Below are positions 1,258 through 20,125 of a stretch of 64,000 nucleotides of DNA, piece after piece (position 1 is the stretch's first letter; every line of letters begins with the position of its first letter). The notes beneath the pieces were generated by a model, which saw only the letters and a program-made list of their open reading frames with translations, searched no databases and was not told the origin of the DNA. The stretch is from Tuberibacillus sp. Marseille-P3662 (lineage in GTDB: Bacteria > Bacillota > Bacilli > Bacillales > Sporolactobacillaceae). The stretch spans positions 248,001 to 312,000 of the forward strand of contig NZ_FXBS01000005.1 in the NCBI RefSeq assembly GCF_900178005.1, given 5' to 3'. The translations under genes were made by a program, and so were the position numbers.

Positions 1258-3000
1258 ATGAGTGCGATTTGGTTGGTTGTCTTTGGATTCATTGCGTTCT
1301 TCTTAGGATATAAGTATTATTCCAACTTTGTTGCGCAGAAGGTATTGAAGCTTGATCGGAATTACGTCACACCGGCTCATGAATATAAAGACGGAGTGGA
1401 CTATGTTCCGACTAACAAATTTGTGTTATGGGGACATCACTTCAGTTCGGTGGCAGGTGCGGCACCAATCCTGGGTCCGGCGATTGCAGTTTTTTGGGGC
1501 TGGCTGCCAGCACTACTATGGGTCGTTCTCGGAACAATATTTGCTGCTGGTGTGCATGACTTTGGAACCTTGGTGCTATCCGTTAGGCATAAAGGGCGAT
1601 CGGTCGGGAATATTGCAGATCGGATTGTGGGCAGTCGGGCTAAAATTTTATTTTTATTTATCATTTTGATTCTCGTATTAATGGTGAATGCCGTATTCGC
1701 TTGGGCGATTGCTAATTTATTCGTCACGTATCCTGCAGCTGTCCTGCCGGTATTTATTGAAATCCCACTTGCGGTATGGATTGGTTATAAGGTGTATAAG
1801 AAGAGCGGGAATATGCTGCTACCCTCAGTTATTGCCCTGGCAATAATGTATGGCATAGCGGTGCTAACAAGCTATGTCCCTGCTTTAGAAATTGACTTTG
1901 TCTCATGGTTTGGCGGTGAAGGACATACTGTTGCTGGCTTGGGTGTAACCGGCTGGGCTTTCTTTATCTGGATTGTTATTCTTATGGTATATGCCTATAT
2001 TGCTTCCACGCTACCCGTATGGAAACTTCTGCAACCAAGAGACTATATTAACTCGCACCAACTCGTCGTCGGCTTGTTAGTCTTATTCCTAGGCTTGTTT
2101 TTGAGTAATCCCGAAGTCACGGCGCCAGCCATGAACACAGAAGCGAATGTACCGTGGTTTCCACTATTATTTATAACCATTGCTTGCGGTGCGATTTCAG
2201 GATTCCATGGACTCGTTGCCTCAGGAACGAGTTCAAAACAATTGGATCGGGAAACGGATGCGCGGTTTGTAGGTTATTTCGGTGCTGTCGGTGAAGGAAC
2301 GCTCGCGTTACTTTCCATTATTGCGGTTGTCACATTATTTAGTTCACAAGAAGCATTTATGGAAAACTATGCTACGTTTAGTTTGGCCCAAGGCGGTGGT
2401 CTCGGGAATTTCATCGCGGGTGCTGCCCAGTTGGCTCATGAAGGATTGGCCGTTCCGATGAATGTGGCAACGACCATTGTGTCAATTATTGTCATTAGTT
2501 TTGCGGCCACAAGCTTGGATACATCCGTTCGGTTGATGCGGTATATTATTAGTGAACTGGGTGTTGAATATAAAAAGCCAGTGCTCACGAAAATGCATGT
2601 AGCAACGTCCATCGGTGTGATTGCTTCAGCTGCTTTGGCGCTTTTACCACAAGGGCCAAAAGGCTTCGGTTCCGGCGGTTATCTCATTTGGCCGCTGTTT
2701 GGTACGAGTAATCAATTGCTCGCAGGGATTAGCCTGCTACTCGTCTCAATTTGGTTGAAAAATAAAGGGCGCAACTATGTGATTACCCTGATACCAATGT
2801 TTTTCCTCATGTTTATGACGATTTGGGCAATGGCCCAGAGTGTATTCTTTCAATGGTCCGGCTACGGTGATCATGAATTCCAAGGATTGCTGTTTATTTT
2901 GGGTCTCGTCATTTTCTGTTTCGCTATCTGGATTGTGATTGAGTCACTGCGAACGTTAAGTCAAAAAACACCGCCAACAGATCAGTCGTTAAAAGAGTGA
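1258..3000 (+). CDS. cstA: Carbon starvation protein / pyruvate transporter CstA
   Basis: A 580-residue polytopic membrane protein of the CstA family, whose members import pyruvate (and peptides, by older reports) when carbon is scarce. About sixteen hydrophobic segments cover the whole length. The conserved N-terminal region (KFVLWGHHFSSVAGAAPI, residues about 54-71) and the later GTSNQLLAG stretch are typical. Length agrees with the short CstA/BtsT form of Firmicutes. The start ATG 1258 follows AAAGGGGGG. A cre-like site and TATAAT boxes sit just upstream, and the gene is followed by the first copy of a dispersed repeat that may end its transcript. Confidence 0.92.
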   Translation: MSAIWLVVFGFIAFFLGYKYYSNFVAQKVLKLDRNYVTPAHEYKDGVDYVPTNKFVLWGHHFSSVAGAAPILGPAIAVFWGWLPALLWVVLGTIFAAGVHDFGTLVLSVRHKGRSVGNIADRIVGSRAKILFLFIILILVLMVNAVFAWAIANLFVTYPAAVLPVFIEIPLAVWIGYKVYKKSGNMLLPSVIALAIMYGIAVLTSYVPALEIDFVSWFGGEGHTVAGLGVTGWAFFIWIVILMVYAYIASTLPVWKLLQPRDYINSHQLVVGLLVLFLGLFLSNPEVTAPAMNTEANVPWFPLLFITIACGAISGFHGLVASGTSSKQLDRETDARFVGYFGAVGEGTLALLSIIAVVTLFSSQEAFMENYATFSLAQGGGLGNFIAGAAQLAHEGLAVPMNVATTIVSIIVISFAATSLDTSVRLMRYIISELGVEYKKPVLTKMHVATSIGVIASAALALLPQGPKGFGSGGYLIWPLFGTSNQLLAGISLLLVSIWLKNKGRNYVITLIPMFFLMFMTIWAMAQSVFFQWSGYGDHEFQGLLFILGLVIFCFAIWIVIESLRTLSQKTPPTDQSLKE

Positions 3001-3005
3001 CGGCA

Positions 3006-3197
3006 AGAGGCTGGGATAAATCTCAAACAGGGTACTCAGGAAGCCGAATGTTAGCTGAGGCCGTGCCCGCGGCAAGCGAAGGATTTTGACGAAGCAATGA
3101 CAGGAATGACTGCTTTCAACAAATCATCCGAACGGATTAATCAACAAGTTCGGATGATTCTGTGATTCATATCCTTTTGTTCCAGTCTCTTTTTTTA
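3006..3197 (+). repeat. Dispersed hairpin element, copy 1
   Basis: This segment shares long blocks with 19972-20125, including TTAGCTGAGGCCGTG, GATTTTGACGAAGCA, CCGAACGGATTAAT and ATATCCTTTTGTTCCAG. The ends are imperfect inverted repeats (AGAGGCTGGGATAA against the complement of TTGTTCCAGTCTCT) and a T-run follows. The centre holds a perfect 12-bp stem, 3122-3133 with 3148-3159. It may act as the cstA terminator as well as being a mobile or amplified element. I see no coding capacity. Confidence 0.8.
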
Positions 3198-8449: not shown

Positions 8450-8686
8450 GTTAAACGTGATTGTTGATTTCCGCTCCAGGCGTTCACTTTCCGCGGGGCA
8501 ACGCTTCAGCCTCCTCGGAAGACAATCACTTCCTGCGGGGTCTTCAGCTGTTGCTTTTCCTGCAGGACTCTAGTAAAGGCTTCTTGAGTAAGTGGCATTG
8601 AGGAACACACTAAGTTTAAGTGTTCCGAACCTCGAACGCCTTCCTCTCCAATCAACGAAGGATAAAATACAATAATGACCTTTAAC
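8450..8686. repeat. MITE-like intergenic element with terminal inverted repeats
   Basis: The 17-base ends 8450-8466 and 8670-8686 are inverted repeats matching at 14 positions (GTTAAACGTGATTGTTG against GTTAAAGGTCATTATTG on the other strand). The interior is GC-rich with TTTCCGCTCC, CACTTTCCGCGGGG and AGCCTCCTC blocks, a pattern I recall from dispersed repeats in many Bacillaceae. No transposase is encoded, and the 60-codon reading frame inside is not credible. It fills most of the 470-base gap between the divergent PBP and ywiB genes. A related fragment is at 45160-45203. Confidence 0.7.
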
Positions 8687-10993: not shown

Positions 10994-11759
10994 ATGGGAC
11001 AAGAGCGTTCTTTGGTTCGTGCATTGCGGGACAGAATCATTACAATGCGGGACGCTTTTGTTGCAGTATGGGACAATCACGGGACAGCGCGCCTTCTATG
11101 GGACAAGAGCGTTCCTTGGTTCGTGCATTGCGGGACAGAATCATTACAATGCGGGACGCTTTTGTTGCAGTATGGGACAATCACGGGACTACGCGCCTTC
11201 TATGGGACAAGAGCGTTCCTTGATTCAAGATTTGCGGGACAGAATCATTACAATGCGGGACGCTTTTGTTGCGAAACGGGACAATCACGGGACAGCGCGC
11301 CTTCTATGGGACAAGAGCGTTCCTTGGTTCATGCATTGCGGGACAGAATCATTACAATGCGGGACGCTTTTGTTGCAGTACGGGACAATCACGGGACAGC
11401 GCGCCTTCTATGGGACAAGAGCGTTCCTTGATTCAAGATTTGCGGGACAGAATCATTACAATGCGGGACGCTTTTGTTGCAGTACGGGACAATCACGGGA
11501 CTACGCGCCTTCTATGGGACAAGAGCGTTCCTTGGTTCATGCATTGCGGGACAGAATCATTACAATGCGGGACGCTTTTGTTGCAGTATGGGACAATCAT
11601 GGGACAGCGCACGCCCTATGGGACAAGAGCGTTCCTTGATTCAAGATTTGCGGGACAGAATTTTTACAATGCGGGACGCTTTTGTTGCAGTACGGGACAA
11701 TCATGGGACAGCGCACCATCAATGGAACACCACACCCTTAATGGTCCAATCACGGGATA
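10994..11759 (+). repeat. Tandem array of seven 104-bp units plus a degenerate eighth
   Basis: Units start at 10994, 11098, 11202, 11306, 11410, 11514 and 11618, each exactly 104 bases. A decayed copy from 11722 fades out near 11759. Each unit holds five same-strand GGGAC words at offsets 3, 35, 56, 77 and 88, so 35 exact copies in 728 bases. Two subtypes differ near offset 18-33 (TTGGTTCRTGCATTG or TTGATTCAAGATTTG) in the order A A B A B A B. All three forward frames are free of stops, but the length is not a multiple of three, so I treat it as non-coding. It fills most of the 990-base gap between argS and the hydrolase gene. Nothing else is recognised there. Confidence 0.95.
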
Positions 11760-18481: not shown

Positions 18482-19972
18482 ATGACGGATCAATCGATGG
18501 ATGAAGCGGTAGGAGAGAAAGAAGTAGGTCAGCTTAAGTTTCGTGGCGGGACGTTTATGGCCGCTTTACCGCTGGCCTTTTTTGTGGTTTGGGCAATTGT
18601 TCTGAGTGTTCAAGGCCTTATTACGGAACAGGCGCTGGTACTAGGTATTGTCATCGGTCTTGGTATTGGACTGCTTTTTTGCAAATCAAAATGGGCGGAT
18701 TATGCTCAGAGCTTGTTTTCAGGCATGGCTCAACCCGTTGGTGTGGTCGCGGTTATTGCTTGGTTTTGGGCAGGGATGTTTGCTAAGATGCTACAAACCG
18801 GAGGGCTTGTGGACGGACTGATTTGGTTTGGCTTTATTACTAACATGTCAGGTGGATTGTTTGTCGGTTTGACCTTTGTTTTGGCTGCCCTCTTTGCAAC
18901 AGCTGTTGGAACTGGTTATGGGACGGTCTCTGCATTTGGTATATTGATGTATCCTGCTGGTATCGCCCTTGGAGCTGACCCTGTCTTAATGTTAGCAGCG
19001 ATCCTAAGTGGAGCGGTGTTTGGTGATAACCTGGCACCCGTATCCGATACGACAATTGTGTCAGCAACCACCCAAGAAACGGATGTGCCTGGTGTCGTTC
19101 GGTCACGGTTTAAATACTCAATCATAGCTGCAGTGCCGTCATTGATTTTATTTGTTATTTTCGGCGGTGGCGGTTCAGCAGAAAACTTAGCGGCGGTTGC
19201 ACAATTGAAAAGTCAAGTGTCTCCGAACGGTTTATTGCTTTTAATTCCATTTATTCTTGTCATATTTCTAGCGCTAAAAGGTCATCATTTATTAACATCA
19301 TTGACATGGGGAATCATCGTCTCCTTTTTCTTTATCCTGTTCGCAGGTGTTCCTTTGAAAGAGGTTTTATATATTCACATGAATAACAGTGGTTCACCAG
19401 TTGTTGAAGGTGCTTTGATTGAAGGAATTACAGGCTACTTTAATATGGCGCTCTTAATTTTATTTATATTAGCGGCGGCTTACTTACTAGAAGCAGCGGG
19501 TACAATGGAGGCTATCAAAGCCTTCTTTATGAAAATGATTAATAATGTTGTTCGCCGGGCAGAACTGACTATTTTTGGTATTGTGGCATTCTTGAATGTG
19601 TTTATAACGATTAATACCGCATCAGAAATCGCGGCCGCACCTTTTGTTCGCCGGTTGGGCAAAGAATATAATATCCATCCGTACCGACGAGCTAATTTTC
19701 TTGATACCATTTCATCCTCACTTGGTTATATTTTTCCGTGGAGTGCTGGGGTGTTACTTGCTTGGAGTACGATAAAAACAGCAGCTCAGGATTTTGATTT
19801 CATCACCGTTGTTAATCCGTCTCAAGTATTCCCGTTTGTCTTTCAGGGCTGGGGGCTCATGATCGTCATGCTGATTGCGGCGTTGACAGGATGGGGACTT
19901 CGTTTCCAAGGCAAGAATGGTGAAGCGGTCAAACGTAAGGACTTACCCAATGAAGGCAAGGAACTATCATGA
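18482..19972 (+). CDS. NhaC-family Na+/H+ antiporter-type transporter
   Basis: A 496-residue polytopic membrane protein with about eleven to thirteen helices, of the NhaC/ion transporter superfamily. Family members exchange sodium or organic ions (malate, arginine/ornithine) against protons or each other. The segment SGAVFGDNLAPVSDTTIVSA near residues 179-198 is the hallmark conserved region. The exact substrate is not certain. The start ATG 18482 follows GGGGTGAT. The gene is transcribed away from the MCP gene, converges on the cardiolipin synthase gene, and is followed at once by copy 2 of the dispersed repeat. Confidence 0.82.
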   Translation: MTDQSMDEAVGEKEVGQLKFRGGTFMAALPLAFFVVWAIVLSVQGLITEQALVLGIVIGLGIGLLFCKSKWADYAQSLFSGMAQPVGVVAVIAWFWAGMFAKMLQTGGLVDGLIWFGFITNMSGGLFVGLTFVLAALFATAVGTGYGTVSAFGILMYPAGIALGADPVLMLAAILSGAVFGDNLAPVSDTTIVSATTQETDVPGVVRSRFKYSIIAAVPSLILFVIFGGGGSAENLAAVAQLKSQVSPNGLLLLIPFILVIFLALKGHHLLTSLTWGIIVSFFFILFAGVPLKEVLYIHMNNSGSPVVEGALIEGITGYFNMALLILFILAAAYLLEAAGTMEAIKAFFMKMINNVVRRAELTIFGIVAFLNVFITINTASEIAAAPFVRRLGKEYNIHPYRRANFLDTISSSLGYIFPWSAGVLLAWSTIKTAAQDFDFITVVNPSQVFPFVFQGWGLMIVMLIAALTGWGLRFQGKNGEAVKRKDLPNEGKELS

Positions 19973-20125
19973 TAGAGGCTGACCAAGTTAGCTGAGGCCG
20001 TGGCAAGCGAGGGATTTTGACGAAGCATAACAAAAATGACTATTTTAACCAATCCTCCGAACGGATTAATATACAAGTTCGGAGGATGCTGTGACTAATA
20101 TCCTTTTGTTCCAGCGACTCTATCT
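19972..20125 (+). repeat. Dispersed hairpin element, copy 2
   Basis: A shortened copy of 3006-3197 with the same orientation relative to the preceding transporter gene. The central stem AATCCTCCGAAC (20051-20062) with GTTCGGAGGAT (20077-20087) is kept although one base pair has changed from A-T to C-G. The ends are again imperfect inverted repeats (ATAGAGGCTG against the complement of GACTCTAT). It spans the gap between convergent genes and may serve as their terminator. Confidence 0.8.

What the first reader, a model, noticed from the sequence alone, without database searches (positions are those of the whole stretch)
3006..3197. Dispersed element with a compensatory base-pair change
The copies at 3006-3197 and 19972-20125 share several blocks separated by variable DNA. 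In the central stem one pair is A3126-T3155 in copy 1 and C20055-G20084 in copy 2, so the stem is kept while the sequence changed. That points to a structure under selection. Both copies lie just after a transporter gene in the same relative orientation and have inverted ends.
Basis: partly seen in the sequence, partly recalled or inferred. Interest (0 to 1): 0.6.

Follow-up and report, generated by a model that had tools for sequence, protein, structure and literature searches.

The report
Mobile DNA that replaces transcription stop-signals
The repeat is one of many copies of a folded, modular, gene-free mobile element common in Bacillus-type bacteria; where it could be compared with a close relative, it had jumped in by replacing a gene's natural "stop transcription" hairpin.

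Summary
The two window copies belong to a family of at least 53 copies in this genome. It is a modular, BOX-like element: terminal inverted repeats, a covarying core, 0-5 full tandem 78-bp units and a terminator-like hairpin. A covariance model of the core matches 187 of 249 genomes of the order but 3 of 299 across the phylum. Cross-genus covariation is strong: 12 of 36 pairs change on both sides, 0 of 500 shuffles reach this. Copies sit flush behind stop codons: 29 of 53 between convergent genes, 0 between divergent genes.

The decisive result comes from a genome of the same order (G163) with many closely similar copies. Fifteen of its loci were traced in two sister genomes. At nine, a sister has a plain 22-34 bp terminator-type stem-loop where G163 has the element, to within a few bases, without target duplication. 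So the element inserts by replacing terminator hairpins, as reported for IS1272, and probably supplies a terminator itself.

The mobilising enzyme was not found; an IS1182-type transposase is inferred. Rfam tsr24 is a sub-threshold relative. I classify this as a new variant of a known kind.

The parts
3007..3189 (+). Copy 1 of the element, internally deleted; starts 6 bp after the stop codon (2998-3000) of the 580-aa transporter gene 1258-3000
   Evidence: locus L056
3007..3048 (+). Left box with left terminal inverted repeat GAGGCTGGGATAAA
3050..3095 (+). 3' half of the structured core (GCTGAGGCCGTGCCCGCGGCAAGCGAAGGATTTTGACGAAGC); its 5' partner is deleted in this copy
   Evidence: model R1, E 0.004 for the partial copy
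3122..3159 (+).
3173..3189 (+). Right box with right terminal inverted repeat (CCTTTTGTTCCAGTCTC)
3190..3196 (+). T-tract (7 T) directly after the right end: host flank of the terminator type
19975..20118 (+). Copy 2, with larger internal deletion, between convergent genes (stop of + gene at 19972, end of - gene at 20124)
   Evidence: locus L045
20052..20087 (+). Hairpin of copy 2 with the compensated pair C20055-G20084
8473..8583 (-). Related core without recognised terminal repeats ('core-only' copy), in a divergent intergenic region
   Evidence: R1, 57.3 bits, E 3.9e-12

Best explanation
The repeat is a non-autonomous mobile element (MITE-like, modular like pneumococcal BOX) of a family spread through the order. 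It inserts by removing the stem-loop of an existing intrinsic terminator at the base of the stem and taking its place between the old A- and T-tracts (shown by comparison for the related family of genome G163; inferred for the window's genome from the same ends, A/T flanks and position). Because its terminal repeats pair to form a new stem next to the surviving T-tract, and because it often carries its own bidirectional terminator-like hairpin, insertion is close to neutral and the element becomes the terminator of one or two genes (inferred). After insertion the host keeps the hairpin arms while the rest decays. Between hosts the whole fold is kept by compensating changes. A transposase of the IS1182/IS1272 type acting in trans is the most likely mobiliser (inferred, not found; that IS1272 belongs to the IS1182 family is recalled).
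For: Replacement: G163 locus L176 has the element where G559, G560 and, read by eye, three more distant congeners have a plain hairpin. Fourteen further loci were searched in G559/G560 and all were found in both; 13 were printed, for G560 only. Eight of these show a single hairpin instead of the element between flanks that align to within 4 bases of the junction (the G559 matches span similar lengths); four have flanks that diverge near the junction with a hairpin in between; one has the element in the sister too. Eight of the nine replaced hairpins have 10-14 bp stems, G-T counted; the ninth, L178, has 8+4 pairs around a mismatch (fold). No duplication of 3-8 bases. Flanks in 39 copies of G163/G145: A 30, 33, 28 of 39 at -1 to -3; T 31, 34, 29 of 39 at +1 to +3. 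Position: 29 convergent, 24 tandem, 0 divergent of 53, against background 13/82/37 (Fisher 3.6e-10 and 9e-7); 20/19/0 of 39 in G163/G145. Left end within 25 bp of the stop codon in 28 of 29, right end within 30 bp in 32 of 41; in 17 of 29 convergent cases both gaps, counted from the first and last recognised base, are at most 30 bp, which leaves no room for another terminator (read). Constraint on hairpin arms. Core covariation. IS1272 replaces inverted repeats of 21-85 bp without duplications (PMC5678879, passages).
Against: No autonomous partner with these ends was seen: read by eye, no facing ends 0.8-3 kb apart with at most 1 mismatch in the window's genome, nor among the perfect ends listed for G163 (list partly cut). 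Of six IS1182-type genes on plasmids, four had inverted ends within the stretch scanned: two begin GAGGCCACTG (one with AC before it), one GAGCCACTG, one GGAGACCTCC; the match to this element's end is 9-11 of 15 bases, near chance. Empty sites were shown for one lineage only, not for the window's genome, which has no congener here. A 2-bp identity of the two flanks occurs in 4 of 39 (shuffled mean 1.8, maximum 3). A simple terminator scan (loop of at most 8) does not call the hairpin in three loci, and the own-genome hairpin has a weak U-tract. Five of 53 own copies lack a recognised right end, and L080, L077 and L082 have lost all or part of the hairpin. In relatives 7 of 27 copies with a recognised right end lack a strong hairpin there, the G163 copy L140 among them; G163 copies have a strong hairpin near the left end instead. 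There is no transcript evidence.
Confidence: 0.78

Rival explanations
1. Ordinary MITE that lands anywhere and survives only behind genes, because elsewhere it harms expression (the explanation given in print for BOX and RUP).
For: [quoted passage not shown] Modular form and inverted ends fit.
Against: Insertion replaces a stem-loop at 9 loci; no duplication of 3-8 bases; ends flush with A- and T-tracts and stop codons. Selection alone does not remove a hairpin.
Confidence: 0.12
2. Vertically kept 3'-UTR RNA with a host function (terminator, mRNA stabiliser or small RNA) and little or no mobility.
For: Covarying core, G.U over A.C excess in the best cross-genus copies (30 to 5, with a selection caveat), conserved hairpin arms, weak match to S. 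aureus small RNA tsr24.
Against: At least 53 dispersed copies in the window's genome, insertion differences between sister species, many G163 copies 94-97% alike, own-genome stems other than the hairpin decay with little covariation and without G.U bias.
Confidence: 0.06
3. The compensating change is not selection but copying between the two arms of a palindrome (quasi-palindrome correction or conversion).
For: Within this genome only two pairs of the hairpin change on both sides, one of them shared by 9 copies.
Against: Across genera changes are spread over five of six helices, including long-range ones with partners about 75-125 columns apart: 12 pairs, 0 of 500 shuffles. 26 of 36 pairs show two or more Watson-Crick types in 40 rows from 32 genomes.
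Confidence: 0.04

Closest known systems
BOX elements of Streptococcus pneumoniae (PMC3049150)
   Same: Composite of a left module, a variable number of tandem middle modules and a right module; terminal inverted repeats paired in a predicted RNA fold; enriched between convergent genes; extra modules in a related species (passages).
   Different: No sequence relation tested; BOX was not reported, in the passages read, to replace terminators; its positional bias is weaker (16 of 86 convergent in its Table 1); middle unit here is 78 bp; host range is the order, not streptococci.
IS1272 insertion by inverted-repeat replacement (PMC5678879)
   Same: Target is a 21-85 bp stem-loop, replaced without target duplication; four insertions very close to genes lay immediately downstream of them (passages).
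   Different: IS1272 is a 1.9-kb transposase-coding element; this one codes for nothing and carries a conserved multi-helix core. Its end sequence was not seen, so the ends were not compared.
Rfam RF02577 tsr24 (S. aureus small RNA)
   Different: No match reaches the gathering score of 50 in 21 genomes searched or in the 14 distinct loci scanned.
bcr1 of the Bacillus cereus group; SPRITE, RUP
   Same: Short dispersed structured repeats; SPRITE is terminator-like and near convergent 3' ends (passages).
   Different: No terminator replacement seen in the passages read; for bcr1 I saw listings and a table row only, and its target duplication is recalled from memory and not seen here.

Membership tests
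BOX-like modular repeat | End modules plus variable number of tandem middle modules | tested here: met
   L box, 0-5 full 78-bp M units, R box
BOX-like modular repeat | Sequence homology to boxA/boxB/boxC | not tested
   No BOX sequence was fetched
MITE | Terminal inverted repeats, short, no coding capacity | tested here: met
   copies with both ends are 132-674 bp in the own genome and 175-286 bp in G163/G145
MITE | Target-site duplication | tested here: not met
   Searches (34 copies; 39 copies): k 3-8 not above the range of shuffles; k=2 4 of 39 against shuffled mean 1.8, maximum 3
MITE | Parent IS with the same ends in the genome | tested here: inconclusive
   none seen; one broken DUF772 (IS1182-type) remnant with unlike ends
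Inverted-repeat-replacing transposition (IS1272 mode) | Target stem-loop replaced, no duplication | tested here: met
   G163 against G560 at nine loci, G559 read at one of them; not testable for the window's genome
IS1182 family | Ends matching the family's inverted repeats | tested here: inconclusive
   two of six share the start GAGGC, then differ; overall match near chance
Rfam RF02577 tsr24 | Score at or above the gathering threshold | tested here: not met
   best 43.5 bits of 50
Intrinsic terminator | GC-rich stem, short loop, T-run, by simple scan | tested here: not met
   three loci, scanner allows loops of at most 8; in relatives 20 of 27 copies with a right end fold to -15 kcal/mol or lower there, many with T-runs
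Intrinsic terminator | Transcripts end at it | not testable with these tools
   No RNA data

The most novel reading that the evidence does not exclude
A structured RNA-bearing element spreads through most genera of an order by hunting terminator hairpins and standing in for them, and its covarying core acts as RNA (made from the element at the 3' end of host transcripts), either guiding or licensing its own transposition or insulating the host transcript end.
Probability: 0.25. Interest if true: 0.88.

Novelty: new variant of a known kind. Interest (0 to 1): 0.73.

Why it matters
It explains how dense families of structured repeats can fill the 3' ends of genes without harm: the element takes the place of the terminator and seems to provide one. 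It ties together separately described things (BOX-like modular repeats, a staphylococcal small RNA, inverted-repeat-replacing IS) and makes a testable claim about what a transposase can use as target, a structure rather than a sequence. It also gives a natural source of terminator turnover between species, and a covariance model that marks these sites across the order.

Tried and rejected
Target duplications: none of 3-8 bases. Own-genome search for an autonomous IS with the same ends: by eye, no facing ends 0.8-3 kb apart; the DUF772 remnant L095 has no such end. The 1.6-kb extra DNA beside the element in G559 is an IS110-family IS, taken as a passenger: its end motif also borders 4 of 34 G163 copies. 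The plasmid collection gave no match to the window element at blastn sensitivity. Rfam at gathering: nothing in the window. Simple terminator scan: hairpin not called.

Strand test: in own-genome copies, outside the five pairs whose commonest form is G.U, there are 115 G.U and 133 A.C cells (my subtraction). The excess of G.U in the best cross-genus copies (30 to 5 by pair, type and genome; 12 to 5 by pair and type) may be inflated, because those copies were picked by a covariance model of that strand. Over the best 60 rows (57 distinct) the counts are 65 to 29.

A competing pairing of the left-box CCGAAC with the hairpin's GTTCGG was considered; the left-box motif is not specially conserved in this genome.

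Literature: searches by topic and by sequence gave no description of this family in the listings seen from the held library. PMC2267715 (passages) lists stem-loop families in B. halodurans and S. aureus (Bhal-1, Bhal-2, Sta-1 to 3) that I could not compare.

Rows dropped: five loci with only small fragments or no match (L090-L094, two of them overlapping) from the 58 own-genome stretches before the count of 53; five of the 53 without a recognised right end before the 48; L058 before the 44; L197, where the end patterns did not match, before the 39; L192, found, was not printed. In one search an end was accepted at 11 or more matching bases, which random stretches reach in 10 (left) and 22 (right) of 300.

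Full report
What was claimed and whether it is there. The two copies are present. Copy 1 runs from 3007 to 3189, 6 bp after the stop codon of a 580-aa transporter gene, and is followed by seven T. Copy 2 runs from 19975 to 20118, between the stop codon at 19972 and the end of a convergent gene at 20124. The compensated pair is as stated. A blastn search of the window's own genome (3.68 Mb) with copy 1 gave 88 matched pieces, 40 of 69 candidate places being scored, and a search with the consensus left half gave 53 pieces, 40 of 62 scored. I fetched 58 stretches; 53 carry recognisable copies. More copies may exist.

Anatomy. Full copies have a left box of about 100 bp that begins GAGGCTGGGACAAA, zero to five full tandem 78-bp units, and a right box of about 184 bp that ends TTTTGTCCCAGCCTC. 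The end repeats are inverted to each other. The right box holds a long-range structured core, partnered by the left box, and a hairpin. Both window copies have lost the middle. Other copies carry an extra module between core and hairpin, or lack the middle hairpin of the core. The predicted fold of the consensus pairs the two ends, then the core, then the hairpin.

Family. The same full plan, with other sequences in the hairpins, is found in relatives; a core pattern matched Scopulibacillus, Pullulanibacillus, Thalassobacillus and Bacillus piscicola by name (18 stretches). A covariance model of the core (128 positions, 36 pairs) matches 187 of 249 genomes of the order at E <= 1e-4 (83 of 105 genera) and 3 of 299 drawn across the phylum at E <= 1e-5, of which one is the window's own genome, one is of the same order and one of the same class. 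In the window's genome the model gives 77 matches at E <= 0.01 among 150 scored of 830 candidates; about 40 of them lie outside the 53 places and were not examined. Rfam has no match at gathering in the window. Below gathering the S. aureus small RNA tsr24 (RF02577) matches the core at E 6.5e-6 in one relative and at 27.8 bits in an own copy.

Is the structure real? On 14 core sequences (13 distinct) from several genera, 97.9% of cells pair against 90.1% in shuffles; 12 pairs change on both sides against 4.9; no shuffle of 500 reaches any of the five measures; sliding the partners by 1-3 columns drops pairing to 32-41%. In 40 distinct rows scoring above 100 bits from 32 genomes, 26 of 36 pairs show two or more Watson-Crick types (rows aligned by the model itself). 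In contrast, copies inside the window's genome show little covariation overall (2981 paired cells against 2943 expected). They look like decaying insertions, with one exception. The arms of the hairpin are 97-98% identical to consensus, and about 99% once one covarying pair is left out, against 84-92% for the other parts and 88% for the loop. In nine copies that were found without using the hairpin the arms are at 96-97%, the loop at 90%, the other parts at 71-94% (per position). This is what one expects if the fold matters to the element's spread and the hairpin matters to the host afterwards (inference).

Where it sits. Of 53 copies, 29 lie between convergent genes, 24 between tandem genes and none between divergent genes. 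In other intergenic gaps of at least 40 bp in the window and the fetched own-genome loci, the numbers are 13, 82 and 37 (Fisher 3.6e-10 for convergent, 9e-7 for divergent; genes are open reading frames called by script, at least 60 aa for the copies and 100 aa for the background, not annotation). The left end is within 25 bp of the upstream stop codon in 28 of 29 cases, and the right end within 30 bp of the facing stop codon in 32 of 41. Between tandem genes it points with the genes in 10 and against them in 14, so it follows 3' ends, not orientation. In 44 loci from relatives the 23 copies with both ends recognised are 15 convergent, 8 tandem, 0 divergent; 8 with one recognised end are 2, 6, 0; 13 without recognised ends are 4, 7, 2.

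How it gets there. Genome G163 of the same order has 73 forward and 73 reverse end motifs, many in pairs about 275 bp apart, and copies 94-97% alike. I examined 34 of its copies and 5 from G145: 20 convergent, 19 tandem, 0 divergent. The base before the left end is A in 30 of 39, then 33 and 28; the base after the right end is T in 31 of 39, then 34 and 29. The preference fades outward, as in natural A- and T-tracts. There is no duplication of 3-8 bases; a 2-base identity occurs in 4 of 39, a little above shuffles. For one copy (L176) two sister genomes with 92% identical flanks have 26 bp in its place, and these form a plain hairpin; three more distant congeners have other plain hairpins there, read by eye. 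I then joined 110+110 bp of flanks for 14 further copies and searched the two sisters; all 14 were found in both. Thirteen were printed, for G560 only. Eight show one hairpin within 22-34 bp where G163 has the element, with flanks aligned to within 4 bases of the junction; the G559 matches at these loci span similar lengths. Four have flanks that diverge near the junction, with a hairpin in between. At one the sister has the element too. With L176 this makes nine clear replacements; eight have stems of 10-14 bp and one, L178, has 8+4 pairs around a mismatch. For L176 a plain hairpin is in five other genomes, so the element is the newcomer; at the other eight loci this rests on G560, with G559 in agreement by length.

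Mechanism. This is the mode described for IS1272, which replaces inverted repeats of 21-85 bp without duplication and was found immediately downstream of genes in the four cases close to genes (PMC5678879, passages read). The element codes for nothing, so a transposase must act in trans. I found no partner with these ends. Of six IS1182-type genes on plasmid records, four had inverted ends in the stretch scanned, such as GAGGCCACTGAAAAA, which share only the first bases; the overall match is near chance. In three of them (L246, L247, L250) the sequences printed around the IS look like the two arms of a terminator-like inverted repeat (my reading). So the family of the mobiliser is a lead, not a result. 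After insertion, the paired ends plus the old T-tract, or the element's own hairpin, can end transcription (inference). In relatives 20 of 27 copies with a recognised right end fold to -15 kcal/mol or lower in front of it, many with A- and T-runs on the two sides; 7 do not, among them a G163 copy, and G163 copies have a strong hairpin near the left end instead. In the window's genome the U-tract is weaker, and a simple scan that allows only short loops does not call the hairpin. In 17 of 29 convergent cases there is no room for any other terminator (read).

What is known. BOX elements are the closest in plan (PMC3049150, passages). Ten literature searches showed, in the listings seen, no account of this family or of terminator replacement by a non-coding repeat in the held library; subscription journals are mostly not held. 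I therefore call it a new variant of a known kind.

Noticed in passing
window 10994-11729: Tandem array of a 104-bp unit, 7.1 copies, 91% matches, giving overlapping reading frames that look spurious; not followed.
   Followed up: no
window 8473-8583 (-): Core-only relative of the element in a divergent intergenic gap upstream of a 696-aa gene; about 40 of the 77 model matches in the genome lie outside the 53 collected copies and may be of this type.
   Followed up: partly
L244 906-2141: IS110-family transposase gene directly beside a copy of the element in G559; the same end motif borders 4 of 34 G163 copies, so an IS110 may use the element's end as a target.
   Followed up: partly
L247, L246, L250 (plasmids of Metabacillus, Priestia, Enterococcus): IS1182-family insertions appear to sit inside the loop of terminator-like inverted repeats, with the loop duplicated (by eye).
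   Followed up: partly
L017 4465-4531 (+): Rfam Bacillaceae-1 RNA (76.8 bits) near a 5S rRNA gene in the window's genome.
   Followed up: no
L134, L137: Copies whose hairpin has only the 3' arm (GTTCGG); the left-box CGAACAA could pair with it instead, enclosing the core.
   Followed up: partly
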